Origin: Kappaphycus alvarezii
Taxonomy: Eukaryota; Rhodophyta; Florideophyceae; Gigartinales; Solieriaceae
Reading direction: 5' to 3'
NCBI GenBank assembly: GCA_002205965.3
Contig: NADL03000523.1
Span: 558,001-622,000, forward strand
DNA length: 64,000 nucleotides
Shown: positions 8,259 through 55,883 of the stretch, one piece after another
How the letters are laid out: each line of letters starts with the position of its first letter
Numbering within the stretch: position 1 is the first letter of the stretch
Translations under genes and position numbers: made by a program
The notes under the pieces: generated by a model
What the model was told of the DNA's origin: nothing
Database searches by the model: none
The model's input: the letters and a program-made list of their open reading frames with translations, nothing else

Positions 8259-8358
8259 CAGGTGATTTATTTCACTATGGAGGGATTTGAAGAGTATTCT
8301 TGCATGAGAAGTGAATCTATGTCTGCGTAATAGTCTCTCAAAGCCCTCGAAGCGTCCT

Positions 8359-9353: not shown

Positions 9354-9639
9354 CGGCTCGTTGCTTTGGGCCGGCCCGATACGGCTGCGAGCAGATTGGC
9401 TTGGTATCCGGCTGCAGGTCGATGCGGTGTTCCACTGTGTTTATCTTTCCGAGCGTACTATCCCACATTTCCGGGAACTTCATGAGCATTTCTCGTACTC
9501 GTTCCTGTCCTTCCTTCGACAGATGCTCCAGGTTGGCGTCGTCCAAGTTCGGTTTATCTGCAGTGTCCTTGTCCAATGTACGTTGAATGAACTTGTACAT
9601 CTTGTATTTCTTATCCTGCGAAAATCGAGAGAGGGTCAC
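9286..9639 (-). pseudogene. Reverse transcriptase N-terminal part
   Basis: The sequence includes VEHRIDLQPDTKPICSQPY, the classic entry block of Ty3/gypsy RT, then a TAA at 9340-9342 where relatives have an acidic residue, and IDRMLQLGVIERATSPWA in the same frame. The homology stops at the deletion junction. The start overlaps the end of the protease frame by 4 bases in another phase, so protease and RT are not in one open frame here. Confidence 0.85.
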
Positions 9640-27696: not shown

Positions 27697-28877
27697 TTGT
27701 TGCGCATGTTGCGGCGAGTAACCTCGGGTTCCTGTGTGTTGGAAAGACGCCCCCAGTAGATACAAGGCGTTCCTAATCTCACTTGAGGTCCGTTTTCCAT
27801 AAACGAATCGGGATATCACAGAGTCTTAGCCAAACCTACAACCGCCCACCACCACCATACAAGATTCCCGAACAAATCTTCTCTTGCCCTTATATCCCAC
27901 CCCGCAAACCTTCTCCATTGCTCCTCCGCCAGTCTGTCGGGCCTCGTACCTTTCCCGTTCAACAAATCACTTTCTTTTTTTTCCCAAGTTGAAACGCCCT
28001 TGCTCGATTCCTGCCCCATTGTATCCCGTAAAGAAATTCAAACACACTGTACAGCTGCGTTTGCCGTGATTTACAGGCGCAGTTCAGGCAAGCTGCAGAG
28101 ACGCTGACTAGTCGCGAGCAGGCGGCTTGGCATTGTCGCCGTTACTGCTTTTACAATCTCCACAACACCCCTTTCACACCACCGTTGTAGATAGCCACAT
28201 TGGACATGTCCAAAGGGAATCAGGTACTGCACATCCCGCGGATCGGGTTTATTCTCAACAGCGATACTCCAAATGAAAACCAGTAGCGGTATGCGCTTTC
28301 ATCCGCAAACACTTGCAAATATTGCGCGGGGAGAAAGGCAGGTGCAACCGAATGCGCAACAGTACGTACAACATACCACATTTCAAACCATCCAAGCGGC
28401 TACCCTGCCCTGCACCCCGCCAAAAAACGAATACCTGCGGTCGCACCCAACCCACCCTCCACAATCTCCCGCCTCGCATCCACAAGCCTTACCCGCGCCA
28501 AACTCGCAGATCACCACCTCCTGTCCAACGAAACAAACTTCAAACACTGTACACTTGGTACCAAGCCCACACAAACCGACCCGACACGCCATAGGTATCA
28601 CGCGCACCCCAAAACAACTCGCCCCCCACACTACACCCCCCATCCCATGCCCCTCAAAACCAAACGCCACGCTCCCTCCCACCCTCTCCTCTTCCCACCG
28701 CATGCCCCTCCCACATGCCCCAAAAAACACGGTAAAACAAAAGACGCGTCGCACCGTTCGCACCGCCTGTCCAAACGGCATTGCCGCTTGCACAAACCCC
28801 TGTTTGCAGCACTGCACGACCGAAGATGGTCGACGAGATTGCAGACGACATTGGGGTGGAGTCTGCGTTGTAGCGGG

Positions 28878-30163
28878 ATGGGTGCGCTGTTTCGTCGCGT
28901 GTATCGGTCGCGGTATCGGGCTAGGTTGGTGTGTGTTTCGATAGTGTTGTTGTGTGTGGTTGTGTTTTATGAATTGCGGCTGCGTCCTTTGGTGGGGAGG
29001 GGGGCGGGGGGCGGGGGGGAGTCGGTTTCCGAGACGGGAGAGGGCTTGGTTGTGCGGCCGCCGCGGGTGGGAGAGTCGGTGTTGTTGGGGAATTTGCACA
29101 AGACGTTGTATGTGATACCGGGGAAGGAGAATCGGTGTAGTTATCAGTATGACTATTTGTGCAAGTTTTGGTTTTACGTGCGGTGTTATATCTTTGGTGC
29201 GTTTCCTTCTGTGGTAGTGTTACCGTCGGGAATGGAGGGGGTGAGTAAATTTCAACGGCGTGCGCGGGATGGGGATATCGGAATGTTGGTATGGCGGTCG
29301 AAGAATCATTCGATGGTGCCGGATTTGCTGGAGTATTTGTTGGAGTGGCGTCGGGAGGGGGGACGGGGGGCTGAGCGAGGGGTGCGGGTGAGAGTAGGGG
29401 TGTTTCACATTGCCAACGAGAAGCGACGGTACTACTGGCCGTGGTATGTGCATGCTGATTTCGTGGTGAGAAACTATTGGCTTGGAGCGGGGATGATGCC
29501 GCAGCACGGGGTGTATGTGCCGCTCGGGGGGCAGATGCCGGAGGTATGCGAGCCGGGGTCTACGATGAGGGAGGGGCGGGGGGTTTGCAAATGCGGTGGA
29601 CTGCGTGTGAAGCGGGGGGGGGAACGGAGGTGGGTGTGGAATTTCGGGGGAGTTTGAGGAAGCGGAGGGGAAAGTTGCTGCGATTGGCGGGAGAGTCTGA
29701 GGTGTTGCGAGGGCGTGGGTTGGTGAAGGTGGCGAAACGGTTTGGGGGGGATGGGGAGTTTGGAGGGGTGGCGGGGAGAAACCCAAAGACGGGATATCTG
29801 GAGGGGATTATGGAGAGTATGTTTGTGTTTGCGCCGTGTGGAAATGCGATGGAGACGCATCGGGTGTATGAGGCGGTGATGTTGGGTGCGATTCCGGTGG
29901 TGGAGGAGTGTGAGGGTGGGGGACGGGGGGAGTTTTTTCCGGTAAAGGAGTTGAGAGTGAAGGAGGTGGGGGAGATGGTGAGGTTTGTGGAAAGGTATGT
30001 GGGGGATGCGGAGGGTGTGGAGAGGTTGCAGAGGAGGGTGATGAAATGGTGGACGGCATATGCGGAGGAGGTGTTGTGGAATGTGTCGCGGGTGATTGGC
30101 GAGCATGTGGCGGTTGGGGAGCGGGGCACGGCAGGCATGCAGGGGATGGAGGAGTGGGAGTGA
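28878..30163 (+). CDS. Exostosin-like glycosyltransferase, one frameshift
   Basis: The chosen start (MGALFRRVYRSRYR) precedes a single hydrophobic anchor (about residues 15-33), giving a type II Golgi topology. The luminal part has FGAFPSVVV, VFHIANEKRRYYW and MPQHGVYVPLG. It ends with the exostosin/GT47-type C-terminal block: ESMFVFAPCGN, then THRVYEAVMLGAIPVV. Enzymes of this type add sugars to cell-wall or matrix polysaccharides. The first part ends at a stop at 29657, and the C-terminal half (to 30163) is one base out of phase. The switch must lie at about 29600-29655, next to a run of nine G (29614-29622), so either a sequence error or true inactivation is possible. The frame is open upstream to 28647, but that part is low-complexity. 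Sense-strand codons are extremely G/T-rich. Confidence 0.75.
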
Positions 30164-30215: not shown

Positions 30216-31136
30216 CTACTTTTGCACAACATGAGGCTTGCAGGGGCTTGCGCAACCCCTGAACAAGCTTTTAAGATATTCATAATCAATCCGCTGCCAT
30301 GGGCGCAGCTCATTCAGATACTTAAAGTAGGCGCCAAGTGGATGCGAGAATTGTGCTGCAAATTTCGGGATGGCGTGGCGTTTGAATTGCGCGATCGCAG
30401 TTTCCGTCCTCCTTTTGGAGAGGTATCGAATGCCACTCCATGGCAAATCACCGTGCAACATAGCATAGATTGCATAGCCGAGACTCTCCAGGTCATGACT
30501 CGGTCTCGGTGGCATTTGATCGTGCGCTGCGATAGGGGAGTAGATGGTGACGCCGAGATAGCCGTGGCCATGCGTTGGATGTTTGAGGGTTGGATGGTCG
30601 GGATGGAAGATGGCGTATTGTCTGGCAAGGCCGAAATCAATGAGGTATGCGTCTTTGAGATCTGAATAGGCGGTGACTATGTTGGATGGCTTGAGGTCGC
30701 AGTGGATGATGCCGTGGTTGTGGATGTGCTGCAGGGCGTCGATGATTTTGATGGCGATGTTAGCAGTGATGTAGGGGGAGAGAGGACCTTTGTCGAGCAG
30801 GTCGGAAACGCTGGGGCCGAGGTATGGCATGGCGAGGGAGTTTGTTTTCTGATCTCTGCTGGTGTGGAAGCTGAGTACTTTTGGGATGGATTGGCAGGAG
30901 TTTAGGCGTTGTTGGAGGAAAGCATAGATTTTGAATTCATGGAATAGGGTAGAGTGGATGGAGGACGACTCTACTTTGAGGGCGACAGTGTTGCCGTCCT
31001 TGTCGATGGCTTGAAAGACATTTCCGTAGGTTCCAGAGCCTAGAAAGCGAACAACCCTCCATCCTTCTGGGACTGGAGGATGGTTGTTTGGGATAATGTT
31101 GACTGGGGAGGGCCCGTTTGTTTCTGTCGCCGCCAT
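30216..31136 (-). CDS. Casein kinase 1-like protein kinase
   Basis: Intact 306-codon frame, no intron. Residues 26-34 carry the Gly loop (FLGSGTYGNVF). The ATP-binding Lys is in VALKVES. The CK1-type catalytic loop is HCDLKPSNIV, and the Mg-binding motif is IDFGLARQ. The activation segment GYLGVTIYSPIAAH and the SHDLESLGYAIY block that follows are those of CK1-family kinases, which replace the usual APE motif. Expected role: Ser/Thr phosphorylation of acidic or primed sites in cytoplasm or nucleus. The C-terminal regulatory tail is very short (about 20 residues), unlike most CK1 proteins. The 5' flank contains an imperfect direct duplication (31276-31521). Confidence 0.9.
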   Translation of the reverse strand: MAATETNGPSPVNIIPNNHPPVPEGWRVVRFLGSGTYGNVFQAIDKDGNTVALKVESSSIHSTLFHEFKIYAFLQQRLNSCQSIPKVLSFHTSRDQKTNSLAMPYLGPSVSDLLDKGPLSPYITANIAIKIIDALQHIHNHGIIHCDLKPSNIVTAYSDLKDAYLIDFGLARQYAIFHPDHPTLKHPTHGHGYLGVTIYSPIAAHDQMPPRPSHDLESLGYAIYAMLHGDLPWSGIRYLSKRRTETAIAQFKRHAIPKFAAQFSHPLGAYFKYLNELRPWQRIDYEYLKSLFRGCASPCKPHVVQK

Positions 31137-31275
31137 TGCTTTGCTTGTCTAGTTGTTTTAATAAAGATAAAGAGCAGATTGCCTCCTTATCGTGTCGCTG
31201 TGATGGTGATGGATCAAAGGGCTGGTGTCTGATTGTATCGCATTGGATCTGTTATTTATAGCGAGAGGCGGCGTG

Positions 31276-31597: not shown

Positions 31598-33103
31598 TCA
31601 CATATCATCCACAGCACCCAAGCCGACTCTGTCCGCATTCCAGGGAATCTCAAACCGTTCCCTCTCCTCCTCTCCAACCAGCAGCGGCGGTCTGTCCCAC
31701 GTAGCGCCGACGCCTCTTTTCACCAACACGCCCGCCATCTCCGCCGTAGCCACAGGCCTGAGGACCATTCTCATAACGGCCAAGACGACGGCCGTTCCCG
31801 CGACAATAATGAGCATGGAGACAATATTCAACACACGCCCCGCCTCCTTCCACACCACGGACCTCCGTCGAACCAACCCCTCACCCACAAACAAATCGGT
31901 CTCATTCCCTCCCACCTGCCTCTGTATCCCGACTGCAGTGGCCGACTTGAACACCTGCTGCGCGATTTGAAAGGCCGGTACACCGACAGGCAAGATGCCC
32001 TCGATTTTTGTGAAAAACCGGCGTGTCGTGACTTGTACTTTGGAGACGGATCCATCCTGTGCGATCACCTCTGTGATGACGATGCGGCGTTGTTGCGGCG
32101 GATCGGGGTCTTCTTGAAACGAGATGTGCTGGTCAAGAAGTTGCAAGGTTTCCAGGTTGATGGTGGGATCTTGTGTTTCACGTCGATATATCGAGACCAT
32201 CATGGCGACTACTTGCCTATGTAACATGCGTACACGTTGGGGAATGAGTCTGCGCGGTGTACGTTGGGGCATGATTCTGGGGCGACCGTCGTCGAGGTTG
32301 TAAAAGGCACGTGCGGAGTAGGTGACGGTTTGGTTGTGAATTCGGATGATGTGTTCAGCGCCGTATTCATGGATGTCTGTTTGAAGGATCATGAGGATTG
32401 GGAGGGTTGTGTTGCGAAAGGGGGTGAAGGGGAGGGTGGTGAGGTTTGTGGTGACGCAGGCGGAGAGACGGGTTTGGGATTGATCGACATTGACGAGGGA
32501 GATGGCGATGCAAGGGCGGTTGAGAGAGGCTGTGTTGTGGTAGCGGACGGGACGCCAGCGTGGGGAAAAGGGATGGCGCATTTCAAAGGTGAGGAGGTCG
32601 TTGCGGATTGGGGTTAGTTCTTGGTTTGTGAGGAAGAGGACGGCGACTTCGAGTCCAAAGGTTAGAAAGATGACGACGAGGGCAAAGAGGAGTAATTTCA
32701 CGTTGATGCGACGTTTGGGGGTGGTGCGAGTGGTGGAACCACGGAAGAGGGGACGAAAGTGAAAGTCGCGTGCCAGGGACATGACGTGTGCGACGGAGAA
32801 GGAAAAGGTGGAGATTTGACCGTTGTGAGTGCGGAGGAGGATGGTGGTGACAATGTCTTGGATGAGGAGGAGGAGGAAGAGGGAGAGGATGGCGAGGATG
32901 ATGTCGTCGTTGGAGGTAAAGTCGCGGTGGAAGAGGTTGTTGGAGCGAACTGGGGTGACCACGAGCTCTTGACTTAGAAACGACGTGATGCTTGACGAGG
33001 TGGATTCTGGCACTGGGTTGTCGATAAACGTTGTGCCGCCGAGACGGGAATCCCACCGAAAGTAGGGCAAGTTGAACTCGTCGAGCAGTTCTCGGAATGG
33101 CAT
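31598..33103 (-). CDS. Multi-pass membrane protein, paralog A
   Basis: Intact 501-codon frame. Hydrophobic segments lie at about residues 68-90, 135-158 and 426-447. The long stretch between the second and third (about 265 residues) has paired Cys (NRPCIAISLVN, RLSACVTTN) and probably faces the outside or a lumen. It ends VGLGAVDDM. It is clearly paralogous to the gene at 33418-34964: both have a TSFLS start, a DDIILAILSLFLLLL-type first helix, an LLLRT turn, a second helix with LTFGLEV, matching Cys blocks and a GAVDD end. I recognise no described family. It could be a lineage-specific surface or channel-like protein. Confidence 0.75.
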   Translation of the reverse strand: MPFRELLDEFNLPYFRWDSRLGGTTFIDNPVPESTSSSITSFLSQELVVTPVRSNNLFHRDFTSNDDIILAILSLFLLLLIQDIVTTILLRTHNGQISTFSFSVAHVMSLARDFHFRPLFRGSTTRTTPKRRINVKLLLFALVVIFLTFGLEVAVLFLTNQELTPIRNDLLTFEMRHPFSPRWRPVRYHNTASLNRPCIAISLVNVDQSQTRLSACVTTNLTTLPFTPFRNTTLPILMILQTDIHEYGAEHIIRIHNQTVTYSARAFYNLDDGRPRIMPQRTPRRLIPQRVRMLHRQVVAMMVSIYRRETQDPTINLETLQLLDQHISFQEDPDPPQQRRIVITEVIAQDGSVSKVQVTTRRFFTKIEGILPVGVPAFQIAQQVFKSATAVGIQRQVGGNETDLFVGEGLVRRRSVVWKEAGRVLNIVSMLIIVAGTAVVLAVMRMVLRPVATAEMAGVLVKRGVGATWDRPPLLVGEEERERFEIPWNADRVGLGAVDDM

Positions 33104-33417
33104 GTTGTTGGGTGGATGGATGGCAGCGACGTGGAGTGTCGGGTGTCGGGTGTCGGGTGTCGGGTGTGGGTCGAAAAGATTTTGGGGGCGAGGAGGGCGT
33201 AGAAACTAGACTCGACGAGAGAGTTAAAAATGCAAACAAGGACAAAAAAGCAAACCAAAAAAATATCCAACCCCCACCATCACACCATCGTCCATCATCT
33301 TTGTGCCGATATGATGCCGACCTCATGTAAAACGTCATCACTGACCTCAACCACATCACAAACCGCCCCTGCGCCCCCCCGCCCCCGCGACCCCGCGCAA
33401 CCCAAAACAAAAATACC
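33104..33417. promoter_or_regulatory. Shared divergent promoter region of the paralog pair
   Basis: The 314 bp between the two head-to-head starts must hold both promoters. It contains a heptamer repeat (GTGTCGG, about four copies, 33136-33170). The plus strand changes from G-rich to C-rich at about 33235. Confidence 0.55.
33136..33170. repeat. Heptamer repeat (GTGTCGG)n
   Basis: About four tandem copies close to the start of paralog A, inside the shared promoter region. Confidence 0.9.
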
Positions 33418-34964
33418 ATGACATCCACTCCGCCACCAAACTTTATCCAAACAGGAGACACTTTCACCCTCCATCCCTCCATCCCCACACCGCCAACACC
33501 CTCCTCCGCAACATTTACATCCTTTCTCTCCTCCAATCTCACCGTCCAACCCCTCGTCACCGGCCCCTTCACCAGCGACCTAACCGCCTCCTCCGATGAC
33601 CTCCTTCTCGCCATTCTCTCCCTTCTCCTCCTCCTCGCCATCGAAGGCCTCACCTCCACCCTCCTTCTCCGCACCCGTCACGGTCTCCTTCACTCCCGTT
33701 CCTTTTCCCTCCGTCAATTCACCGACCTCATCCGCGAGTTTAACATACGTGCCGCCTTTCGCGGTCACCCCGCCTCCAAATCCACCCGCACCCCCCGACA
33801 ACAACACCCCTTGGATTGGCGACTCATCGTGTCTGCCATCCTGCTTGTCATCCTCACCTTTGGACTTCAGGTCCTCGTCCTGTTTCTCACAACCCCCGGA
33901 ACAAGGGAGGTTAGTAACCGTCAGGCCACCTTTCGACTTGTGGACCCGTTGATGCCGCAGTGGGTCCAGATATCACGGTCGCGCAATCTGGCCAATCAAC
34001 CGTGCTCCGCGTTATCCTTGAGCAATGTCGAGCAGGGTGTCACAAGGATATCCGCCTGTTTGACCTCCAGTGTCTCTCGTGATATCGAGGCCGGTTCTCC
34101 CGCCGTGGCCAGTCGCGATTGGACCGTCGTCCAAAATATGACCTTTCACAGTGACATGCATGAGTTTTGGTGGGGAGCATCGCGTCGAATTGGGAGGGCG
34201 TGGGGAGGCGTATAGTTCACGTGCGTATTTCAGGTTGACGGAGCGTGCGGGTGCGGGGGGGGGGAGTGATCAGGGGGGAGAGAGGTTGATGCCGAGGGCG
34301 GAAATTCGACGCGAGAGGGAGAGGCTGGTGCGTGCCGTTCATATGGCGTTTGTTGGCATGTTGTATGCGGCGTATAATAGGGAGGTTGGGCAGGGTATGA
34401 CCGTGGATGGGTTGAATGGTGTGCAGTTTGAATTTGTGGAGGGGGGAGGGTGGGGATGTGGAGATGGTTGATGTGGTGCGTACAAATGGGGGTCGGATTG
34501 TGTTGCAGAGTGCGGCTAGAAAGTATGTGACTCGGGCGACGGGGGCTATTCCCGGTGGGAATGGCGCTTTGCTGTTTGCAGAGGCGTTTTTAAGGGCGAG
34601 TGTCGGCGTGGTGGTGTCGGAGGGGAATACCAGGGATTTGATGATGGCCAGTGGCAATACGTATACGAGGGTGGGCGTGTTGTGGGAGGAGCGGTTTCGG
34701 TGGTTGAATTGGTTGAGTTTGTCCTTGCTGCTGTTTGTTGCGTTGGTGGTGTTGGTGGTGTTGAGGTGGGGATTAAAGCCGGTCGGCATGGGCGAATTGG
34801 CGGGTATGTACGTCGAGGAGGTTGCGGCAGGAGGGAGGGGGGGGGCGTGGGATGCGTTGGAGAGGAGAGAAGGAGTCGAGCAGAGATTCGGCGTCGAGTT
34901 TCGCCCGCTCGGCGCTGTCGACGATTATTATGACGAGCGGGTGGATGCACGGCGACGCCGCTGA
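33418..34964 (+). CDS. Multi-pass membrane protein, paralog B, two frameshifts
   Basis: The ATG at 33418 opens a frame with hydrophobic helices matching paralog A (DDLLLAILSLLLLLAIEG; VILTFGLQVLVLFL) and the same Cys blocks (QPCSALSLSN, RISACLTSS). The frame changes after SDMHEF at about 34165 (next to TTTT) and again at about 34441-34455 (next to a run of six G). Paralog A's sequence continues smoothly across both points (SSRAYFRL matching ARAFYNL, then IVLQSAARKYV and a third helix WLNWLSLSLLLFVALVVL). The C-terminus ends PLGAVDDYYDE plus a basic tail. Homology through to the end suggests a recently functional gene or an intact gene with sequence errors. Confidence 0.7.
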
Positions 34965-35315: not shown

Positions 35316-35490
35316 CTACGCGCAACACTCAAACCCAATCCTACGGCTCATGCCAATGCACCTCCTCACCACGCATCCAAACGGCGTCGAAGGCCTGAGA
35401 CACTCCCGAGTAGCCGTGCGCTCTGCAAACCGCCCAATCCTGCATATACACGGGCACGGCGGCCTCACCGGCGGCCTCACCGGCGGCCTA

Positions 35491-35523
<33 letters not shown>

Positions 35524-36064
35524 CTGGGGATGCTATCAAAATCGCAGCACCAGAATCCACTCCTCCTACCCAAGGGGCAGACATTGACGGAACACAACCT
35601 GAAGGGAGTCCTACTACACTCTTGTCTGGCAATACTCAAGCCGACAGTACCCGGGCGGGCAGCGACAGGGGCATGAAAAGACGGGAGATGGAGAGGGGTG
35701 TGACGGACGGAGTGACCGAGGCGGAAGCACTGGGTGTGGGTGTGGCGGAGGCGGAGGCGGAGGGACTGGGTGTCGGGGAGCGGGACGGGGGGGAGAGATC
35801 GCAACACCAAAAGCCAAAGCGGAAGCGGAGACGGCAGGTGGAGACTTGGCAGAAGCGGAAGATGAAGCGACGACATTGACGACGGGCGAGGAATTCGTCG
35901 CGGAAGCAACGGCAGGGGCAGGGTACCGGCCTTCTCTGACGGTCTGTTGGGGTGTCGAGGTGGGTGTCGGGGTGGGAGACGACGGTTTTGACGGCGTCGG
36001 TTGAGGCGTTGGAAATGGTGCAGAGGGCTAGGAGGAGGAGGAGGAAGAGGGTTTGGAATTTCAT
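35316..36064 (-). CDS. Secreted protein with three Cys-rich modules and Pro/Ser linkers, frameshifted
   Basis: It starts with a clear signal peptide (MKFQTLFLLLLLALC..., cleavage after SNA about residue 19). Three copies of a Cys module follow: 35801-35923 (CPCRC ... FCQVSTCRLRF ... GFWCCD), 35541-35673 (CPCRC ... LCSVNVCPLG ... GFWCCD) and 35319-35456 (CPCIC ... GCVVRRCIGM ... GFECCA, then the stop). The shared spacing is C-P-C-x-C, then C-x7/8-C-x4-C-x9/10-C-C. Linkers are Ser/Pro/Thr/Ala repeats (SPTPSPSASA, SPSPSPSPSP) like those joining binding modules in secreted wall proteins. Frames change between modules 1 and 2, near a C4 run, and again inside module 2. I do not recognise the module. 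Binding of wall polysaccharide would be a guess. Confidence 0.6.
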
Positions 36065-36532
36065 GGTGTGGTTGGTGGTGTTTGGGGTGTGCTGTGGAGG
36101 TTGGTTGGAGTGTGTGAGGAGTGGGGTTTGGAGGGTGGGGTGGTGGGTGGTGGAGGTTTATATAGGGTTTTTGGGGGGATGGGTAAGAGTGGAGGTTTCG
36201 CGGGTGTTTGTGGACGGATGGAGGGGTGAGGGGGGTTGTTTTGGGGGTAAATTTGTTTGGAATGAGGGATGTTGAAGGGCGGGGGGGTTGCGATGTGGGA
36301 TGCGGTGACACAACAAAGCAAGGCAGCAGATCTAGGGGAAGGAGGTTTGGAGTTGTTGAGATATGTGTGGGGGATTATGTGACGTGAGGAATGGATGAGT
36401 GCAAGTCGGGGGGAGGAGCAACGCTGGGGAGTGTGTATTCCGACGTTGTATGTCAACGTGTGTATGTAGGATTTGGCAATGGCAAGCGAGAGAGATGAAT
36501 TACAAACGCTTTGATAGAAGAATATTACAAAG

Positions 36533-37848: not shown

Positions 37849-40499
37849 GAATGCAAATGCAAAAATGGAAAAAGGCGACGGCGATTCAAACAAGCGCACA
37901 TTGTATCTTTGTCATGTCATGGCAGCACCTTACCCTACACCAATCGACTCCCTTACCATCCTTATCATATATAACCAACCACTCGTCATCTTGACCGTCT
38001 ACCGGGCAACATCCTTTCCTCCTCATCATACTATAGCTAGCTCCATTTACATCAACCCAAAACTCAAACGACTAAAACCTAATCACACTTAACACGACAC
38101 ACATCCCCTTCCCGCCTATTCCCTCTCTTTCTTCGCCCACATCCTCCACCTTTCGCACTCCAAAACCAACCCACCCTCCCCGCTCAGCGGCAACCGCAAT
38201 CCCATACCACCCTGCAACACAACACCCCCCCAACCCTCATTCCCACCATCCACACATTTCCAAACACCACACACCACCCCTCTGCCCAACCCCTCACCCG
38301 CAACCATCCATCCCACCCCACCCACTTTTCGCAACCCCCAAGCCCCCGCAACACAACGCACCTTCCATTTACTTCATTCCTACCACCTCACTCTACCACA
38401 CATCTCATCCCAATTCCTCACATCACTCAACCCACTCCATGCCCATTCCGCACACACCATAAAGCCACATCCAAACCACCCTGCCTTGCACCTCCCGCCT
38501 GCATCACCCCCCCTTTGCGTCACTCCACCCTACCGTTCATCCATTCCACCCCACCCATTCCTCCCAGAAATAAAACCAATGTACACTGCCCACAAAAGCC
38601 AATGCAACACTTCTGCCCCATTCACACCCCCCCTCCCACTCCAATCGACCGTCCCTCCCCCCGCCTACGTCCCCTGAAAAGCTCCCCTCCTTTTTTACCA
38701 ATACGCATCTTCTCGCAATCATCACAGCTCTCATATGTTCATCCCATGCACGCCTTGCAACTATGAATTGAAACATGTGCCACTGACACATCGTCTCCTA
38801 CGGCCCACCATCCTTTCCCTGTTGGTAATCATCGACGCCGTTGCAGCTGGCTCAGTCTTCAAATCATCACCAGCGCTTGAAACCAAAAGGCTGCAACTGC
38901 CTCCCCTGCGAAACGGCACCCGGATTCATCGCAGTGCCGTTCACACTCGCTCTTCATTTTTCCACCCCTGTTGCGGTGTCTACACCCGCTTCAACCCCGC
39001 GTTGCATTGTGTCAAGCACGGAAACTGGTGACGCCGGTACAGAAGACGGTGATGTTGTGGGCGGTGCCTCTTTTTCACTGCGAGTAATGTCGACGGCTGG
39101 GAATAATGGGCGCATTATTGCATGAATTGAAACGGCGCCGTTTTCAAATTACGGGACGTGGCTCTGGTCGGTCCACACTTTGGTGCAATACCGGATCGGG
39201 TTTTCAGCAGTTGCGAGACATGCTTTTGGGGGTGAGTCGTCTGAAGCCACAGTTGCAATACAACCGTACGAGTCCGAGTCTTTGTTCAAACACATTAAAA
39301 GACTCTTTCCTGCATTCTGTACTAGTCTGAAAAGTTTCTGCACGACCAGGGATTGTACATTCGGGTGAATTCAACACTCTGCCAGGGCCCGGTTCATGTA
39401 GTTTCCTTTTCAAAACATATCAGGGTGATATGTAATACGAAGCAAATGTACTCCATGCACAATGCGTGGCTATACTTCTGCTTCATGAGGGCCGCAAACT
39501 ATAAGCCCAAAAGGTTTATGGTGAGGCTTTTGAGTTTCAAAGACCAGCTTATCTGCCAATCTTTTCTTGTCCCTTTTTTGAGTCGGACTTGCCGCCTCTT
39601 GTCAAGGGACTAGAGAATTGGGATATGTAGAAACATGACATTGTACTTGGATATCCATGGCTGTCTGGAAAACTATGGGATAGATCGGATATATCTTCCA
39701 AGAGTAAAACACCCAAACCTTTCCCCTTGGATATCCTGTTTGACCACCTCTTTGGAATACTGTATGAGCCCAAAAATGCCTCTAGTACGGTATATCCTCC
39801 GTAGTGCTGCCGTTTTTAAACTACAAAAATAGATTCGAGTGAATGTACCGCCCAATGGGTCCGTAGAAACATGTCTACATACTTATTTGGCGGAAATTGA
39901 TGATGAACAAGGGGGGAATGATGGGGTAATTTACTTCGCCGTCTGACACTTCTAGCGGGGGGAATCTGAACAGAGTTTGGAGAAAAGGAAGGGATGAAAA
40001 AGGCCTTAGTGATACCAATCCTTTCATTTGCTCAAACGGCATATTATTCGGTGCTCTTTACAAGAAGTATCGATGCAACTTAATCCATCCATCCGAGTCG
40101 AAAAAAGCAAACTTTTGCGGTGTAAACAGAGGCCTGGGTCACTCCAATTTGTATGCCTGGCACATAAAGAGGTACGAGACACAGATGACATTAAATCTAC
40201 CCGGATATCTGTGGATGGTTTGACTTTTGGGCACATGTAATCTACCGCGGCCAGTGATTGCATTCTATTCCGGACCGCTGAGCAGTGCCAACTGCGTCAC
40301 CAGTTTGTATCTACAGAGCTAGGGTTATAAGCGGAGAGCATGTTTAGATTTATGTTTGCTCTTCTCCCGATGCTTACCATTGAGAGAGAACCTACATAGG
40401 AGCCTGGGTATATGTATGATGGGTCGACGACGGGAATGTTTAAGGTTCTTGTAGGCGTCCCCAAGAGTTTTTCAGGCGCACATTGCAGATTCCTTTATA

Positions 40500-40500
<1 letters not shown>
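37849..40500. other. Intergenic DNA, C-rich then AT-richer, no supported gene
   Basis: 37,900-38,800 is strongly C/A-rich on the plus strand. The minus strand has Gly/Trp/Val-rich frames (38116-38361 and 38537-38791) that might be the G-rich end of a decayed gene, but stops intervene and I recognise nothing. The partner of the dispersed repeat lies at 39678-39725. Confidence 0.4.
39678..39725 (+). repeat. Dispersed repeat fragment (partner at 26601-26647)
   Basis: Direct-sense copy of the repeat described at 26601-26647. The flanks do not match. Confidence 0.65.
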
Positions 40501-44152
<3,652 letters not shown>

Positions 44153-45157
44153 CTATAACTTCCAACCTCTACAATAATAAACCTTGAAGTCACCTAGGGA
44201 ATCATCTTCTGTTGGCTCTCCGTACCAGTTATGGTATTCTCGACGGAATACAATACTAAAGGAAACATCTGAAAATGAGCCATAGTGATCCAATTCTCGG
44301 ACTATCATATCATTGAAAAACCAGTATATTGTTTCGTTAGTTATGAGTAGTCCAATTTTCACTTTGGGTTCTTCATGAAGATTTTTAGATGTATAAATTA
44401 TCTTTGGTTTATCATAAGGAATCTTTATATTCGAATTTGTGAAACTGTTTGCTTTGTAACCGATATTAGTTATAAAACATTTCTTAAGAGGCAAAGAATT
44501 AAAATTTCTTTCCGTAGATGAGTACTGTATTATACCTATTCTTCTTCCATTAATTCCGATATCCTCTAACGAGATTGAGCTACTAATTGCAGAATTTCCA
44601 AGGGCACATAAAATTTCAATATAGCCGTTTTGCATTGCACTTTTGCTCCTCAAAATTGATGTAGAATAAAAAGGTTTGCCTAGACTCAATCGCTCAGCAG
44701 TAGTTTGTCGCTCACAGAAGTTTATTTCATGTACTTGGAAATAATTGTGGGCTCTTAAAATGTCTTTATCCGGTTGACATTCTTTGACTGTCAATAATAT
44801 ACAGTCTTCTTCAAGTAGAACATTTTTATCATCAACCTTTGTTGGAAAATTGGAGATTTCATCATGTAATGCTCTCCACTGAGTCATAGACAAGATGTAA
44901 TTAAGCTTCAATATCGGAGAATTCGTCTTCTTTGAAAAATCGGAGGACCACTTGTATTCTCGAGGAGCATAGCGAGTGGACTTTGTAAGTATTTGAACAA
45001 CTCTAGGTGGCTGAGGGTATCTTCTTTCCGAGAAGGAATCAAGGCTTAACGAGTCGGGTAGACTTTGGATCTTCCGCCTCATTTCGTAGCCTAAAACATC
45101 AGTGAGTTGAAAATTTTCAGTCAATTTTTCATTCGTCATTTTCTGTAACACGTTCAT
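44153..45157 (-). CDS. Orphan protein, possible GH16/concanavalin-like fold
   Basis: Intact 334-codon frame in otherwise empty AT-rich DNA, far longer than chance ORFs nearby. It is rich in Ile/Ser/Asn and lacks a signal peptide. The segment PFYSTSILRSKSAMQNGYIE resembles the 'TS-x-x-RSK...YGYFE' strand of family-16 glycoside hydrolases. The later KIGLLITNETIYWFFNDMIV resembles their 'W-x-x-D-x-I-x-WYVDG' strand. The catalytic E-x-D-x-x-E is not seen where expected (SISLEDIGINGRR), so if the fold is right the protein is a non-catalytic or binding relative. This is a weak, by-eye similarity. The alternative is a gene of viral or plasmid origin. Confidence 0.55.
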   Translation of the reverse strand: MNVLQKMTNEKLTENFQLTDVLGYEMRRKIQSLPDSLSLDSFSERRYPQPPRVVQILTKSTRYAPREYKWSSDFSKKTNSPILKLNYILSMTQWRALHDEISNFPTKVDDKNVLLEEDCILLTVKECQPDKDILRAHNYFQVHEINFCERQTTAERLSLGKPFYSTSILRSKSAMQNGYIEILCALGNSAISSSISLEDIGINGRRIGIIQYSSTERNFNSLPLKKCFITNIGYKANSFTNSNIKIPYDKPKIIYTSKNLHEEPKVKIGLLITNETIYWFFNDMIVRELDHYGSFSDVSFSIVFRREYHNWYGEPTEDDSLGDFKVYYCRGWKL

Positions 45158-48100
45158 TATTCTCTCAGGTAATAGAGTCTAGATGTCAATGAAAAGATAA
45201 TGCACAGAGAATATGTTTACGGGCAAAGTAGGCCGAGGAGAAGATGTACACCTAAAAAATAATATAAAATTAAGGAACATAAATTTTATACTCAAAGAGT
45301 AGAGAGCTGCGCGATATTGATCTTTCTTTAATTTTCCATGGAACATAAATTCTGCGTACTCTTCTATTTAGCTATGATGATTTCCTATTTTAGTATTGTC
45401 TCACCTATTTTTTCTAAATTTTCTAAAAATTGATGACAGAAAATAATATCAAAACCACTTAGTTCTTATTTAAGTAAAGGAAGTTTGCATACTATTTTAT
45501 GACGGTTGGAATGAAATATTATGCATTGAAAAGTTAATAATTAAAAAAAAACTCAATCAAGCGAATGCTGAATTTTTTATGTTGAGAAAGTGATTCTGAA
45601 ACATATTTTAGTTCATAAATGAATTTTTGTTAGCATAAAGTACAAAAAACTATATTTTCAACTGTAAATGAATTCTTTTCAAAGAATATCACAGCAAAAC
45701 GTACATTTACAAAAAGAGGCTTAAAATTCAAAATTTAAAGTCAAAAATTTTGAATAATTTCATAGGTGAAGCACTGAAGTCTTGTAATACGGGAAATAAC
45801 ATGGACATTGAATACAAACAAAAAAGTTGAAACTGGAAACTTAAAACCATATTCTCCCTGAAAAATGGTTTTTGGTAATAAGTGTTACTTGAGTAAAATA
45901 AAAAATTCATATAAGCACATGTAACTCGTTTTGTAAAAATACGAGTCAATTTTTTGGAAAGTTTTTAATCACTAGAAATGCTTAATATATTATCCATTGA
46001 GCCACATGGCAAAATTACTACATCAATGAAACAACTTTTAGAAAGACTCTACCTTAAGGCAGTAAAATCATTTACTTATGCAAAAAGCTTGATTAGAGCC
46101 GACAGGGATAGTCATTTGTCCCAGAGATTAAATTCGCGTGCTACCTAAAGTCCATAGAAAAATTTGTTGGAAAAAATGTCACTACTATTCAATTCAAATT
46201 TGCCATAAATTGTATATTTTTAATCGCAGAATTTCACATAGCAAAAAAATAATTATACCTGAAAGAAACTAAAAATATAGCATTCGAAGCCATTTAATAC
46301 TTCCTGTTACAATTTATTCAATTAATTGTTTTTTAGTTTGCTCAAATATTCGATTTTCACTGTGCAGAGGTAAACATATGTAAGTTACGCTACTGCTGAT
46401 TTAAAATTAGGAGGAATTCTTGGGTTATTTTAATGTATGCAAGATGTGGTCGGTTGTATCCACGCCGCTAGTACGTTGTGCGGGATATGGGTTCAATGAT
46501 GGGTAGCACTAAATAGCATCCCTTAAGTACTTGATTTAAAATTTTACTGATATTGAAATTCAGAATTTTTCATAAATAAGAAAGTTTTATGTTGGTACAA
46601 GTGTGAAAAATAATTGAAGACTAATAAATGGAAAATAAAAGATATCCAGTGAAGTGCTTGGGCAAAATAATTATTCTGTTCTGGAAGTATCTTTAATGCT
46701 AAGGTTTTGGTAGTTGAATTTTATTCCTTCTGTTTTGTTCCTGCGGGCATCGCTCCAACTGTTACTGGGTTGATTCTGCTTTACAAACCAACTTAAAACA
46801 CAAAATTTAGGTATCAATTTCTCTCCCTTGATGGTGAGATAATTCAAATACTTTCCCGTATGAATTAACTGAGTAATTTTCAGCTCTAAAAGTTTATTCC
46901 ATAGCACACTGCATCATGGAATTTCGTGAAGAAATGGTTCTCAAAATAAATGTCTCTACATGTAGGAATAAATATCGGAGCCATACAGAGAAATTATATC
47001 AGAAGCAAGAGTGGTAAAATATTTCTTCTTAAAGACTAATTAATATCACTACAGATATTGCTAACAAAGATTTGTCATTTGTCAGTTGATAAATATGATT
47101 AAGTATTTACAGCTGAAGACTATTTACCAAGTTACGTTGGAATTAGACTCGATATCTAAAATGGAAGAGATTTTTCTAGAAACATGATATTTTGAGTAGA
47201 TCAGGAGAAAATTTTCGCGGAAAATGATTTATTATTATGTATATCAAATGATATCAATTGAATAACTAAACAAAGAGGTATATATACTGAAAGACAGAAT
47301 GAATTGTTGTCATTAAAATCATGTGATATAGATTAAATATTTTATTTCTGAAGAAAATCAATTGACCGAGAGAACGCAAAGAAAGGTCAAAACAACTTAT
47401 GAAAATGTCTTAAAGCTTATTCAATGATGAATCAAACGTATTATAATGATTTAAATCATTTAAATAGTTTCTTTTCATCTGCGATATTAGTTATACTCTT
47501 CATATTGACAGGTTTTCACAAATTTCATTGCACTGATCGACACTAGAATTTCATTTTAATCCCGTTTTCGTATTATTTTACGCAGGTAATCAATCGAAAA
47601 TTTTACATTTAATTTTTCCAAAAGGACCCAGTTGCCCTAATGCTGCCATTGGATGCTATTAAACTTCACGTTATCATGAATGATTTTTTTGGTTTCAGTT
47701 CATCTTTTTAGTGGAAAAAATACAGAAATTAGTGAAACTGTTTAGTCTAGAACATATCAGGCGGACAAAAGTGTAAACTGAAACTTTTCCTAAATGTAGA
47801 CTAAAACTTTTCGGGATTTTCGCAGCCGAATAATTGACAAAATCTTATTTCTTAAATGATTTTTAGTATTAAATTTTATTTATTCTGATCATCTTTCGTA
47901 AAAAGTAGTCGTTGATGAGTAAATTTTCAGGAGAAATGTTTTAATTTTTGGATAACCATATTTTACCAAAGGCATGGGTTTGGAAATTGAGATATTTTAA
48001 ATATTTCAGCGAATAAACTTTAAATTTAGCATCAAAATATTGGATGAGACTAGCCCAAAAAAGGATAGAGCGAAAGTTTGAAAAATCGTCAGGTCATCTT

Positions 48101-51100
48101 GTGATGACCTCATGAAATGACAATTAGAATGATATTTGAAGAATAATAAAGGATTTGACATGCTAAAAAGAAGTAAGAGCGGCGAAAGGGGAATGAATAA
48201 TTTATGGATGAGCAGTTAAGATAAAGCGAGTATCAAAATTTTAATTTTAACATTGCATCCAGATTCACTTGAAACAAAATCTCAGGAGTTTTATTTATGG
48301 GTTAAAAAATTTATTATAATAAAAATCTTTATAGTAAGCATGAGCATGGAATGTGAACAATAGAGTTTTAGTCCTAAAAAAGACTGAAAATAAGAACTTA
48401 AAATATTCTTGGAGGAAAACTTTGCTCCAACAATTCCCTAAATTATTCTCCGAAATACAATTATACCTAATACATTGTAATAATATAATTTTATCATAAA
48501 TTAAGAGGTTTATTCAATTAAAGTAATAAAAAAGGTAAAGTTTTTTATGCCTATGTTGTTTGCGGAAGAAAACTGCAATATGCGTAACAGTCGTCCAATA
48601 ATATGTCTAATTAAAACTATGCCAACCTATTATTTCAATATTTCAAAGAGATACTATGACTGAGCAATAAAAACCTTAATCGCATTCGCCGAGTGGTAGG
48701 CAGTTACATACGTCCTGATTTTAGTCTTTCTTCCATATTTCACTGAGCAGATCTTTACGTCAACTATTCTTTAGTATCAGAAATAATTAGGTAAAATGAA
48801 AGTAAAAAACTACTGAGCATTTTTCTACGACTTGTAGATTTGTTGTGAAAATGCATAGTTTGAAAGACAAAAAAGTTTGGTCATCACCAGTTAAAATTTA
48901 GAGCTTGTAATACAGATGCAATAATATCGATTCTTGGCTTTCAACAATTCTCTTTTATGAATTAATTTTCTTATCAACTTTATTCAGGTTCAATTCAATT
49001 GTCCGAGGGCTAAATAAGAAACATAAATTCCTGAAATTCTTACAGATCTGACTGTTTATACTGCCAGTCATCATCTAGTATCCAAATTAGGATTTTGGCG
49101 CGCCAAATGAATTTAAATTAATTATCAGGGCAATATTGTCTATATTTATCCCGCATAAATGTAGAAAATTGAAAAATAAGTCCCTTGAATTCGAACAATT
49201 CATGACAACCATTTCTTGGAGAGTCTTTTACGTCATTAGATGGATTCAATTAATCCCAAAAAGATTGCGTTATCTCACATCAGTCCTCGAAAACTTTCAC
49301 TTTGAGTTGTTGAATTCTTTCTTTTTTTGAAGTCATGAATAAAAGAAGTGCAAACATATAGTGCAAGGAAAGTCTTTTCAGTTCAAGTGTATACTTAAAC
49401 ATGGTACAAAATAGTTTCCATCTGACTTGAAAATTTGCAAAATATTGGTTAAGGATTTAATTCACAGAAGGTGCTGGACGATAATCACCCGCTAAACGTA
49501 ATATACAGTGCAATAGGTGGCACAGTAGGTAATCTCTTGATGGGCCAAGATTATAGCGTTAGTCTTTGGGCTGATTTAGCCATTCAGAGGCGGAAATTTC
49601 TTTTCAAAGAGGGTACTGTGGAACGCTCCATCATTATAAAAGATCTTAAAGGACCCTAAAAGACCTTTATTTCATCTCACCCTTTCCCACAGCCCAGTTT
49701 GTATACATTTTGTAGTACTAATGTTCTCTTTTCCCGAAGTAAAACTACTATTAGGGTTCAATTTACTTACCCTTCGTTTTTTGTAGAGCTCAGATCGCGA
49801 GTTCCTTTCCAGCGAAATTTTTTAATGGATTGATTCTAAGTTAGTAGTGAAGGTACAATCTTTCAAGCTTTGAAAATGACTTCTGTAAATTGCTCAGAAC
49901 AGGGAGTTTCTTAGAGAAGGACCGCATGTTGGTCCGTCCTAATTGGCTCAGAACAGGGGTTTTCTTAGAGATGGTCCGCATGTTGGTACGGCCTACTTGT
50001 GTGAAAAAATGGTTTCTGAGCTTCGTGAGTTGCTTGCCTATAATTTCGTCTTTCGAGAAATTTCATTAAATCCGGATAGTGTTCAGAAAATGACCTCAAG
50101 CATAACATAAACCATAGACAGAGTTGACGACGAGGCAAAATTAGGATAATAGGGTTGTCGTACACTTTCATTATTTTCGCAGCCATCTTCTTATAGTATG
50201 ACAAGAACCCTAAAGATTGTAGCACGTATTAGAAGGCTTTCTTTCAGTGTTAAAAATTCCTGCATTGAAAGCTTAATTTTCTGCACACTCAGATAAGTAT
50301 TGTTCTGTAGGAAAGTTGAGCGAGGCCTAAATTCCACCAATTGTGATACCCGTTTGTGCTTTTTTAAAAAGTTTTACTTCTCTTCATTAATTTAGTTCCT
50401 TCATCCTCATGGAATACAGAAAAAGCGAAATTTGAGGATTTTTATTCAAAATTCTGTTCTTGTTATTAAAAGACATCATCCGTATCTATGCTTTTAATCT
50501 CTTTTTATTTTGCCTCGAAAAATTCTGCGTATAACATTCATGTGTAGAACTACCTTTGAATACCTTTTCTTATACCAGGAATGTAAAATTATAAGTTTTA
50601 TGGTGTTCTACTCCCTAATGAATTTTTTTTTGTTGTGGTTGAATGAATGATTAAGTTTTATGGAATTAATTTTGATTTTGTAGTCAAAAGAGAAATGGAA
50701 GCTTTTTTTTGTTCGTGGCAAAAGTTTTACTCCTAGTACATGTTGTCATTGTAAATTTTCAGTACAATTCATGCTAGACTATTGTTTCTTTTCTCGTCAA
50801 TCTGTAAAAATCAAGAATATCAGCACAATAAAAAGCCAGCTGCACATAAATTTCTTCGAATGAATAGATTAGTTTAACTCACCACGTCATACCAATAAGT
50901 TCTGCAACATTAGTCACCACAAGTCTGCATTCCGATGTGATATAATCTAATACTCGAAAATTTATGGTACGACTGAATGAACCCTTTCTTGTATGAAAAA
51001 ATGACTTCCGAAATATTCGAAAAATTTTCGATACCTTGACCTATCCATCAGATCAATTTTCTGCCCAAAATGGCCTACCAAGTCTTTTTTGGCTTCCAGA

Positions 51101-52241
51101 GAGATAATTATTTATCTTATCTCTTGTTACTAAATCTACATGTGAAATTTCCACGAGATTACCTAAAAATTGTGCAGTGTAACTGACGGAAATTCAAGGA
51201 TATTTAGAATAATTTGTCCTAACCATCTTCAAAAAATTGGGAAACGCGTGGGATGGTTTATTCTTGAAAGATATCGCGGCTGTTATCCGACGTCCAAATG
51301 TACAGGGGAGTTTAACTGTTATAATTAAAGTCAATTCACTTCAAAAAAGTGAGTGGACTGTAATGTTATTCGAACTCACCCCATTCTTTTCAGCAAGTAT
51401 TTTTCAGTAAAGCATTCAGGGTCGATCCATGGTAGTTGAAACAGTGAAATATGAAATCGTGGATTTGCCCGTGGCCGAAAAGAAAAGTCCACGTCTCAAA
51501 AATATAATCAAGTGATGTACAGATTTAACATCATATCCGGTAAATGTCTGATTTACCCACTAGTGGCATGAAAGAATCGTGACCATAGTAGAGGACAATG
51601 CTGCCAAAGTCGTGGTCCAATTTGCACATACCTGTTGAAAATCTCTATCTTCGATCCGGGGGGTCATCAAACTCTGTCACCCTCTTCTCCTTCGTAATAC
51701 TGTGAGATCCCTAACGACCGCGACAACTTTGCATCTCTGGAAAAACCGTTTTCCTTCTGCAATCCTGAGAATACGCTCCCGGCATTAGAGACTACAATGA
51801 AGTTTATGCTCGGAGGGCCAGAACGTTCCTTCCAACCTCCGGGAGACGAGCAAAATAACACCTGAGCAAACCCTGAGCAATTTCGAGCTACGACGGGATA
51901 TAAAATCGAATCAAAAGCAGTAAAGAAAGTGATCATTTCGCATCTGTGCTAGCGTGGAAGAATCAATCCTGGAGCGACCTAAAATCCTAAATAACGCAGC
52001 TCACGAAGAAAATTATTCCAACAATGTTGTACTCGAAAACGTTGCTAATGCTACCCTGTTGCTTTTCGCTGAGGTGCTAGACAACGGTACATGTAAGAAC
52101 ATACTCAAAACATGAAAGAAATGAGCTTTAATCGCTAAACGAGGAACGAAGTTGAAGCTAGTTGCTATGAAGATGACACAACGACAGTTTTCGCTCGCAA
52201 TCGTGATACAGTATAAAGATATTATGGGAGAGTGAGGGGAT
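45158..52241. other. AT-rich gene desert, right part
   Basis: About 7 kb of AT-rich DNA. Short ORFs (45728-45949, 46671-46907, 49471-49659, 51667-51936) show no domains. The only structure I found is a 53-54-bp tandem duplication at 49888-49994. Confidence 0.6.
49888..49994. repeat. Tandem duplication, two 53-54-bp units
   Basis: The units at 49888-49940 and 49941-49994 share CTCAGAACAGGG, TTTCTTAGAGA and CCGCATGTTGGT, with a few differences. Confidence 0.9.
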
Positions 52242-54325: not shown

Positions 54326-55883
54326 CAGTTGTGGACAAAATTATAAGAAAAACAGAAAGTACAAAACAACTGCTCAAATTTTTAAGCAATGACGGGTTTA
54401 TTAACGCGTACGGACGCATTTTCTGCTACTAAACACGATTAAAAAACAGAATGCGATTTGCTTCAACATTTTGGAAGTTTTGAGCAAATCAACGATTCTA
54501 GGTGGACAATATTGTAAATAGAAATGGAAAAGCAAAGCAAATGTCCCACTTGAATCCTGTTTCAATTCGGAATCTTGTCGCCGTTCTTCTCGTAGACCAG
54601 TTTACATCTACGAGGCATAGATTTTACGAGAGCAGAGAGTGTCTCGTCACCAATTTGGGACCAACATTCCTGTACCGTTTCCAGAAGAGATTCAATGCTC
54701 TCAAACTGCCTCCCGTTTTCGTAAACATGGCGGGCCAGAATACACAACAAATTTTCTATAGGGTTCATGTCAGGGGAGTATGCAGGCCACCACATGACCC
54801 TGACATTCTTATCCTCTAGCCACGATTTCACAATACCAGCTCGGTGATATGGGGCTCCATCATGCATAAAAGTCCAGCAAACTGGCAAGTCCTCAGCGAA
54901 CTGTAGCAAATTATCTTGCAACGAGCGCAGATGCGCAGCGCCGTTCTGCGAACCTTCGAGTACAACCAAATCTGTTTTCCTTGTCCCTGCAAATGCTGCC
55001 CATATCATCACCCCCTCACCCCCATTTTGTCTTTTCTGAAAAAATTCGACTTCATGTCTATTACCCTGACAGTTCACTGCCAAAGCTTCTGGGCCATCAA
55101 GGTTTAACTTCTTCTCATCAGACCACACCACAGCAGACCAGCCAGCTTTACTCCATTTTTTCAACCGCCCATTCCTTTCGGTCTCGCTTGTGCCTTTCCT
55201 TCATTGCTAGAGTAGTCATAACTTTCTTTAACGTCATGAACGGGAATTGATTGAGTACACAGCGCACAGTGTGAGGGTTGACGGCAAGCTGAGGGGACTT
55301 GACTATGGATTGAGATCCTTTTCCCCCTTGCTTTGCCTCTCGAATAATCCGGCGCCTGTCCCAATCGGTGAGTTTCTTGGGTCGCCCGGGGGAGAAGTGC
55401 TTTCCATAATTCTCCCCGAGGCGGAGAAAATTGCGGACTACTGTGGCACTTCGGTGGAGAGCGGCTGCGATTTCTTCGGGCGACATTGCACCATGTGAAT
55501 AAGCCAAAATGAGGCCTTTTTCTCTGTCAGATAATCGACTCCCTCGAGGCATGTTATTGGCGTTTTTGGTCACTGGGATAGTCAGGGAAGGGACCCACTG
55601 GCACTTTTCAATGCTGCGGATAAGATAACAATCAGAGTTCGTAAGGGTTTGCTTTTCTTAGCGCCGAATCCGTCTACTTGGGTATTTCCATTTATATTTT
55701 TGTCCGCCTGTTTATAGAGAGAAGCAAATATCTCCATAAATAATAAAGAAAGTATAAATCTGACTTTTGTATCGTATTCGCAGCCTCTGAATCCATTTTG
55801 TAACGTATTCTAGAGCTCTTCTGTGGACGTATCCCAGCAACTCTTTTATACTTCTGTTTTTCTTATAATTTTGTCCACCACTG
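54326..55883 (-). mobile_element. Tc1/mariner element with complete ends (1558 bp)
   Basis: Terminal inverted repeats of about 35 bp are visible: CAGTTGTGGACAAAATTATA at 54326 and the complement CAGTGGTGGACAAAATTATA at the right end. Both continue AGAAAAACAGAA. It is flanked by TA on both sides, the Tc1/mariner target. The insertion lies within a CAGTA repeat that continues on either side (54309-54325 and 55884-55900). One transposase gene fills the minus strand. Confidence 0.93.
54562..55573 (-). CDS. Tc1/mariner transposase (DD34E), one frameshift
   Basis: The N-terminal part (55573 to 55148) holds paired helix-turn-helix modules: MPRGSRLSDREKGLIL, then MSPEEIAAALHRS, and a second module after the GRPKKLTDWDRR (GRPR-like) linker. 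The C-terminal part (55164 to 54562) carries the DDE core: VVWSDEKKLNL, FMHDGAPYH and SPDMNPIENLL. There are 34 residues between the second Asp and the Glu, the Tc1 spacing. The two parts are offset by one base at a run of six A/T (55156-55161, plus strand TTTTTT). A single-base slip explains the break. The intact ends and otherwise clean protein suggest a young copy. Confidence 0.9.

What the first reader, a model, noticed from the sequence alone, without database searches (positions are those of the whole stretch)
35316..36064. New-looking secreted Cys module repeated three times
After a signal peptide, three modules share the pattern C-P-C-x-C ... C-x7/8-C-x4-C-x9/10-C-C with a conserved G-F-[WE]-C-C end. 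They are separated by Ser/Pro linkers. Nucleotides differ strongly between copies while the Cys pattern and the GFWCCD core persist, which argues for selection on the protein. I know no family with this pattern. The linker style suggests binding modules for the wall or extracellular matrix.
Basis: partly seen in the sequence, partly recalled or inferred. Interest (0 to 1): 0.75.

Follow-up and report, generated by a model that had tools for sequence, protein, structure and literature searches.

The report
Secreted eight-cysteine modules in an alga
The window holds one frame-broken copy of a gene from an apparently unnamed family of secreted algal proteins, built from small eight-cysteine modules on Ser/Pro linkers, which may help hold the algal wall together.

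Summary
On the minus strand (36064-35316) a signal-peptide-like start is followed by three copies of one eight-cysteine module. A profile of 45 paralogous modules, leaving out this gene and its syntenic counterpart, hits the 64-kb window convincingly only at these three places (E 1.6e-10, 1.3e-7, 2.2e-7; next 0.29). The 336-Mb genome, a red alga by its light-harvesting and phycobilisome-linker genes (inference), holds 23 such gene copies in the loci fetched (15 with three modules), plus single-module relatives. 47 of 49 full modules share C-x-C-x-C-x10-16-C-x4-9-C-x4-C-x8-13-CC. Ten contig pairs give pooled dN/dS 0.21. One paralogue ends in a Jacalin-like lectin domain. Pfam, NCBIfam, PHROGs and PDB sequences do not recognise the module. 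The window copy is not open in one frame; its counterpart is broken elsewhere, and so are HSP70 copies, so assembly error or decay both fit. Ten of the 23 copies, counted by eye, are fully open. Best reading: a family of mostly cationic, disulfide-locked extracellular modules, probably binding wall or matrix polysaccharide; defence peptides and protease inhibitors are rivals. Function is inferred, not shown.

The parts
36157..36164 (-). TATATAAA, TATA-like motif about 93 bases upstream of the ATG
   Evidence: seen by eye; not tested
36002..36064 (-). start codon and signal-peptide-like segment MKFQTLFLLLLLALCTISNAS
   Evidence: frame 1 translation; signal peptide judged by eye
35930..36001 (-). 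short segment ending in RQRR, a possible furin/Kex2-type site (recalled motif; the following Pro makes cleavage uncertain)
   Evidence: inference
35798..35923 (-). module 1: CPCRC...C-x7-C-x4-C-x9-CC, ends GFWCCD
35677..35797 (-). linker 1, Ser/Pro/Ala/Thr-rich in frame 1; module 2 starts in another frame
35659..35673 (-). module 2, first part CPCRC (frame 2)
35541..35657 (-). module 2, rest (frame 0), ends GFWCCD
35463..35540 (-). linker 2, Ser-Pro repeats then RPPVRPPVRPP
35319..35459 (-). module 3: CPCIC...C-x8-C-x4-C-x10-CC, ends GFECCA
35316..35318 (-). stop codon

Best explanation
This is one copy of a multigene family of secreted proteins of a red alga, built from a roughly 46-residue module with eight cysteines (expected to form four disulfides), repeated one to three times, usually on flexible Ser/Pro-rich linkers. 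The most likely function is extracellular binding: each rigid, mostly cationic module contacts polysaccharide of the wall or matrix (in a red alga, sulfated galactan is the obvious polyanion), and repetition on linkers gives avidity or cross-linking. Shown: the module, its repetition, its family, purifying selection overall, and one fusion to a Jacalin-type lectin domain. Inferred: secretion (signal peptides judged by eye), disulfide state, ligand and matrix role. Whether the window copy itself makes a full protein is not settled.
For: Family: module 1 finds 9 places in the own genome at E up to 10, among them two paralogous contigs at E 0.015; two paralogue queries find 65 and 36 places at E up to 10, several per gene and some weak. 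The CPCxCR-x-G codon pattern has 52 matches against 14 for the reversed-pattern control. 61 module matches lie at 23 gene copies in fetched loci: 15 copies with three modules, 7 with two, 1 with one. 47 of 49 full modules have exactly 8 Cys with fixed C-x-C-x-C, C-x4-C and CC. Pooled dN/dS 0.21 over ten contig pairs, 27 module pieces and 1136 codons (unchanged without the identity filter, which dropped 0 of 27). Binding context: the C511 paralogue has two modules plus PF01419 Jacalin at 26.2 bits, cut-off 22. 49 modules hold 314 Arg and 6 Lys, net charge positive in 43 of 49. Signal-peptide-like starts are seen by eye in the open copies.
Against: No ligand, expression or localisation data. Of 49 modules 4 are net negative and 2 neutral, so charge alone cannot define the function. 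Three of ten pairs show weak or no constraint (C547/C453 0.46, C84/C469 0.83, C575/C60 1.35). The Jacalin fusion was seen at one locus only (C511; its counterpart C719 is frame-broken) and its score is modest. The neighbouring gene at 31601-33104 is also Arg-rich (48 R, 7 K), so part of the Arg bias may be compositional, though the kinase next to it is not (13 R, 18 K). The window copy is broken in frame.
Confidence: 0.5

Rival explanations
1. A secreted defence family: cationic disulfide-rich modules act on membranes of microbes or epiphytes, like defensins.
For: Arg-rich, net positive in 43 of 49 modules; multigene family; RQRR before module 1 in the window copy; Jacalin-related domains are studied in plant resistance (passage of PMC11766507).
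Against: Several modules are neutral or negative. Modules stay joined by Ser/Pro linkers without evident basic cleavage sites between them in most open copies (by eye). Most pairs are strongly constrained (dN/dS 0.03-0.18 in seven of ten).
Confidence: 0.2
2. A multi-headed inhibitor of extracellular proteases, each module offering a variable loop on a fixed disulfide frame.
For: Tandem small modules with fixed Cys and loops of variable length (4-9 and 8-13 residues).
Against: No match to an inhibitor family in Pfam or in PDB sequences; a lectin fusion and Arg bias are not expected.
Confidence: 0.12
3. The window copy is a decayed copy (pseudogene) of a live family. This does not exclude the best explanation for the family.
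For: Not open in one frame; the counterpart on C100 is also broken, at other places; the neighbouring gene 33430-34961 is also broken while its C100 counterpart aligns in one frame.
Against: In the C519/C100 pair there are 4 synonymous and 2 non-synonymous differences over 107 codons (dN/dS 0.14, few events). Frame breaks occur elsewhere in this assembly, also in HSP70 copies, and 20 of 36 one-base indels between the two contigs fall in homopolymers of 3 or more, against 22% of bases, as sequencing error or slippage would give.
Confidence: 0.35
4. Chance: Cys-rich words in shifted frames of GC-rich repeats.
For: Three different frames are needed in the window.
Against: Paralogue profile against shuffles; three-module open frames elsewhere; silent codon differences.
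Confidence: 0.01

Closest known systems
Jacalin-related lectins (PF01419), including red-algal griffithsin
   Same: One family member (C511) carries a Jacalin domain after two modules; secreted carbohydrate-binding context.
   Different: The module itself is not matched by PF01419, and the window gene has no such domain.
CS-alpha-beta defensins and knottin toxins
   Different: No C-x3-C and no late C-x-C in the Cys spacing (definition recalled); tandem modules on linkers.
Chitin-binding hevein domains (CBM18) and other small wall-binding modules (recalled)
   Same: Repeated small Cys modules on Ser/Pro linkers in secreted proteins.
   Different: CC is the last Cys pair here, not central, and there is no Pfam match.
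Plant and algal extensin/pherophorin-type matrix proteins (recalled)
   Same: Ser/Pro-rich spacers between globular parts.
   Different: The globular module here is about 46 residues with eight Cys; no Pfam match to any of them.

Membership tests
The eight-Cys module family as defined here | C-x-C-x-C-x10-16-C-x4-9-C-x4-C-x8-13-CC and profile match | tested here: met
   Modules 1 and 3 whole; module 2 split over two frames, its larger part matching profile positions 7-47
The eight-Cys module family as defined here | signal-peptide-like start and all modules in one open frame | tested here: not met
   The window copy needs three frames; 10 of the 23 copies, the window's among the 23, meet it (by eye)
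Any Pfam-A, NCBIfam or PHROGs family | score over the curated cut-off, or E below 0.001 for PHROGs | tested here: not met
   0 of 11 modules in Pfam at E up to 5 and in NCBIfam at E up to 1; one module has PHROG E 0.36
Family with a solved structure (PDB, by sequence) | profile match | tested here: not met
   0 matches at E up to 10 with the 11-row profile
CS-alpha-beta defensins | C-x3-C in the helix paired with C-x-C in the last strand (recalled definition) | tested here: not met
   Cys spacings of 47 modules
CS-alpha-beta defensins | fold | tested here: inconclusive
Hevein / CBM18 | central CC followed by further Cys; Pfam match (recalled definition) | tested here: not met
   CC is terminal in 47 of 47 eight-Cys modules; no Pfam match
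Jacalin-like lectins | PF01419 over cut-off | tested here: not met
   Not in the window gene's two scanned pieces; met only in the C-terminal part of paralogue C511, 26.2 against 22 bits
Wall or matrix binding proteins | measured binding or wall localisation | not testable with these tools
   needs bench work

The most novel reading that the evidence does not exclude
A red-algal domain family that works as the protein cross-linker of the sulfated-galactan matrix: Arg-rich eight-Cys modules, strung on Ser/Pro linkers and sometimes joined to lectin domains, that tie carrageenan chains to each other and to cellulose or glucomannan, an unnamed counterpart of extensins or link proteins.
Probability: 0.2. 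Interest if true: 0.75.

Novelty: new variant of a known kind. Interest (0 to 1): 0.52.

Why it matters
Small secreted disulfide modules are a known kind of protein, but this framework is in none of the family libraries searched here and forms a sizeable family in a red alga. The passages that I saw on the red-algal matrix are about its polysaccharides (PMC8307928). If the modules bind sulfated galactans, they give a handle on how that matrix is assembled, and a set of natural galactan-binding modules.

Tried and rejected
Intron explanation for the frame change in linker 1: one 37-nt GT-AG candidate with a non-consensus donor in the window, none of 30 nt or more in C100; not supported. Splicing elsewhere in the gene was not enumerated.

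Relatives outside this genome: one-protein scans, which find close relatives only, of viral contigs (2 stretches matched a pattern, 0 confirmed) and of prokaryote genomes (30 stretches, 0 confirmed). No eukaryote collection could be searched, so absence elsewhere is not shown.

Literature: the strings GFWCC, CPCVCR, CPCICR, CPCMCR, CPCTCR, CPCRCR gave 0, 2 and 2 papers, not relevant by title and abstract start. Red alga plus cysteine-rich or matrix terms gave 54 papers with 15 listed and 0 papers; nothing on this family in the listings. Rhodobindin was considered and dropped: its printed repeat motif is different (passages of PMC4413206). The assembly could not be matched to a paper (0 papers; 15 of 10,991 listed; 5 listed; passages of PMC12567131, give no assembly size).

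Structure: only one of five models is moderately confident, from a three-row alignment, so the fold is not used as evidence. The lack of good fold matches does not show a new fold. The Foldseek search itself was not accepted, nor was a second model.

SSU rRNA search gave no usable answer.

Full report
What is there. The gene lies on the minus strand, 36064 to 35316. Frame 1 starts with MKFQTLFLLLLLALCTISNAS, runs through a short segment ending RQRR and into module 1 (35923-35798). Module 2's CPCRC is in frame 2 (35673-35659), and the rest of module 2 and all of module 3 are in frame 0, ending in a stop. GFWCCD is in two modules and GFECCA in the third.

Is it more than chance? Module 1 finds modules 2 and 3 in the window at E 3.8e-10 and 1.2e-4. 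Over 31 aligned codons, modules 1 and 2 share 17 residues in the Cys frame, 9 of them by different codons; the two other frames share 8 of 30 each. A profile built from 45 paralogous modules, leaving out this gene and its counterpart on contig C100, gives the three modules at 1.6e-10, 1.3e-7 and 2.2e-7, then a gap to 0.29; the best of 20 block-shuffled windows is 0.0046 and of the reversed window 0.12. The seed profile used to collect the paralogous modules did contain two window modules and one from C100, but the paralogues match each other more strongly than they match the window.

The family. The window is part of a 336-Mb, 884-contig assembly. Module 1 alone finds nine places at E up to 10; two paralogue queries find 65 and 36 places at E up to 10, several places per gene and some of them weak. 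A codon pattern for CPCxCR-x-G has 52 exact matches, the same pattern read backwards 14, so some of the 52 will be chance. In the fetched loci there are 61 module matches on 21 contigs, at 23 gene copies: 15 copies with three modules, seven with two, one with one, the window's copy among them; if paired contigs are counted once these are about 13 loci. Of 49 full modules 47 have exactly eight Cys in the order C-x-C-x-C-x10-16-C-x4-9-C-x4-C-x8-13-CC; the other two matches begin at the third profile position, so their first Cys is missing. Beyond the Cys, Pro in CPC (46 of 49), Arg after the third Cys (42), Val after the fifth (39) and Gly before CC (46) are conserved. A further subfamily has one shorter module and a C-terminal region that looks helical by eye: C155, C641 and places on C549, C706, C239, C828 and C830; the C549 and C706 proteins scanned have no Pfam match, and C155 has one at E 0.18 below cut-off. 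The C511 copy has two modules and then a Jacalin-like lectin domain at 26.2 bits, cut-off 22. C60, C575, C630 and C805 have another Cys-rich N-terminal part; the two scanned, C805 and C575, have no Pfam match. It occurs also on C575 at 685 kb and weakly on C792. C684 and C550 have long repeats rich in Ser, Pro and Glu after the modules.

Copies and selection. Contigs come in pairs. Three pairs were compared in longer stretches: window and C100 are 91% identical over 6.6 kb plus two further pieces of 0.6 kb (91% and 83%); C84 and C469 about 90% over 3.3 of 7 kb; C848 and C651 about 90% over 6.1 of 7 kb. The other pairs are judged by module similarity alone. Over ten pairs (27 module pieces, 1136 codons) there are 93.3 synonymous and 69.7 non-synonymous differences, pooled dS 0.128, dN 0.027, ratio 0.21; single pairs run from 0.03 to 1.35, and for the window gene and C100 it is 0.14 from only six differences. 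The identity filter in that script dropped 0 of 27 pieces. A tree of the 49 modules groups them by their place in the protein more than shuffled labels do (17 label changes, shuffled mean 29.2), but the paired near-copies alone favour this and 23 of 42 inner forks are open, so it is weak evidence for an old three-module order; module 1 of the window gene groups with module 2 of its counterpart C100 (98/91), which suggests an internal duplication or conversion in this gene.

The reading frame. The window copy is not open. The C100 counterpart has module 2 in one frame but is broken at other places, including module 3. No splice candidate of 30 nt or more that would link modules 1 and 2 is found in both (one in the window, none in C100). 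The neighbouring gene 33430-34961, a paralogue of the intact gene at 31601-33104, is broken too, while its counterpart on C100 aligns in one frame. Between C519 and C100 the intact neighbour has one indel in 1504 bases, the broken neighbour 21 in 1532, the Cys gene 9 in 746; over the whole alignment 20 of 36 one-base indels are in homopolymers of three or more, which hold 22% of bases. HSP70 copies on C556, C748 and C27 are also split into slightly overlapping pieces in different frames, while those on C497, C540, C813 and C562 are whole; SBD lectin repeats on C625 and C786 likewise lie partly in open four-repeat frames and partly in short or stop-bearing ones. Frame breaks are thus common in this assembly; error or decay of single copies both fit. 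Ten of the 23 family copies have a signal-peptide-like start and all modules in one open frame (C84, C848, C519 at 1036 kb, C469 at 121 kb, C791, C60, C575, C515, C805, C155; counted by eye), so the family looks live whatever this copy is.

The organism. Light-harvesting proteins (20 matches), whose best PDB relatives include entry 7y5e in second place (recalled to be from the red alga Porphyridium), and 16 phycobilisome-linker matches together point to a red alga (inference from established knowledge). There are 36 SBD lectin repeat matches (PF17882), a domain that a passage of PMC11766507 reports from Kappaphycus, Eucheuma and Solieria. From memory the assembly size fits Kappaphycus alvarezii; no paper seen here confirmed this. 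The same review found Jacalin-type lectins only in Gracilariaceae among annotated red-algal genomes (passage); C511 would be a further case. One HSP70 contig (C562) looks bacterial by eye, so the assembly may not be pure.

What it probably does. The modules are small, probably secreted and probably locked by disulfides, carry 314 Arg against 6 Lys in 49 copies, and are net positive in 43. They repeat on Ser/Pro linkers and one copy is joined to a lectin domain. Multivalent binding to wall or matrix polysaccharide is the explanation that covers most of this. [quoted passage not shown] It is a guess: neutral and negative modules exist, and no binding, localisation or expression evidence was available. 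Defence peptides and protease inhibitors remain open.

Noticed in passing
window 31601-33104 (-) and 33430-34961 (+): Head-to-head pair of paralogous, probably membrane proteins without Pfam match over cut-off; the first is intact, the second is broken in frame here but aligns in one frame on C100.
   Followed up: partly
window 28287-30160 (+): Gene with an RXYLT1_C match and a sub-cut-off Exostosin GT47 match, apparently spread over two frames with a G9 run at 29614.
   Followed up: partly
window 30219-31148 (-): Protein kinase in one open frame, Pkinase E 8.9e-25.
   Followed up: partly
window 54565-55657 (-), 63081-63719 (-), 6341-10574 (-): ORFs that look by eye like Tc1/mariner transposases and LTR-retroelement pieces.
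   Followed up: no
window 40001-52000: AT-rich stretch (GC 0.30-0.37) between GC-rich blocks.
   Followed up: no
L088 (G000:C511:195600-197800): Two eight-Cys modules followed by a Jacalin-like lectin domain in one open frame.
   Followed up: yes
L017 and L018 (C684, C550): Family members with long near-identical tandem repeats rich in Ser, Pro, Glu after the modules.
   Followed up: no
G000 C625 and C786: Clusters of SBD (OAAH-type) lectin repeats, 36 repeat matches; some clusters open over four repeats, others in short or stop-bearing frames.
   Followed up: partly
L076 (G000:C562): HSP70 that looks by eye like a bacterial DnaK, so the assembly may hold bacterial contigs.
   Followed up: no
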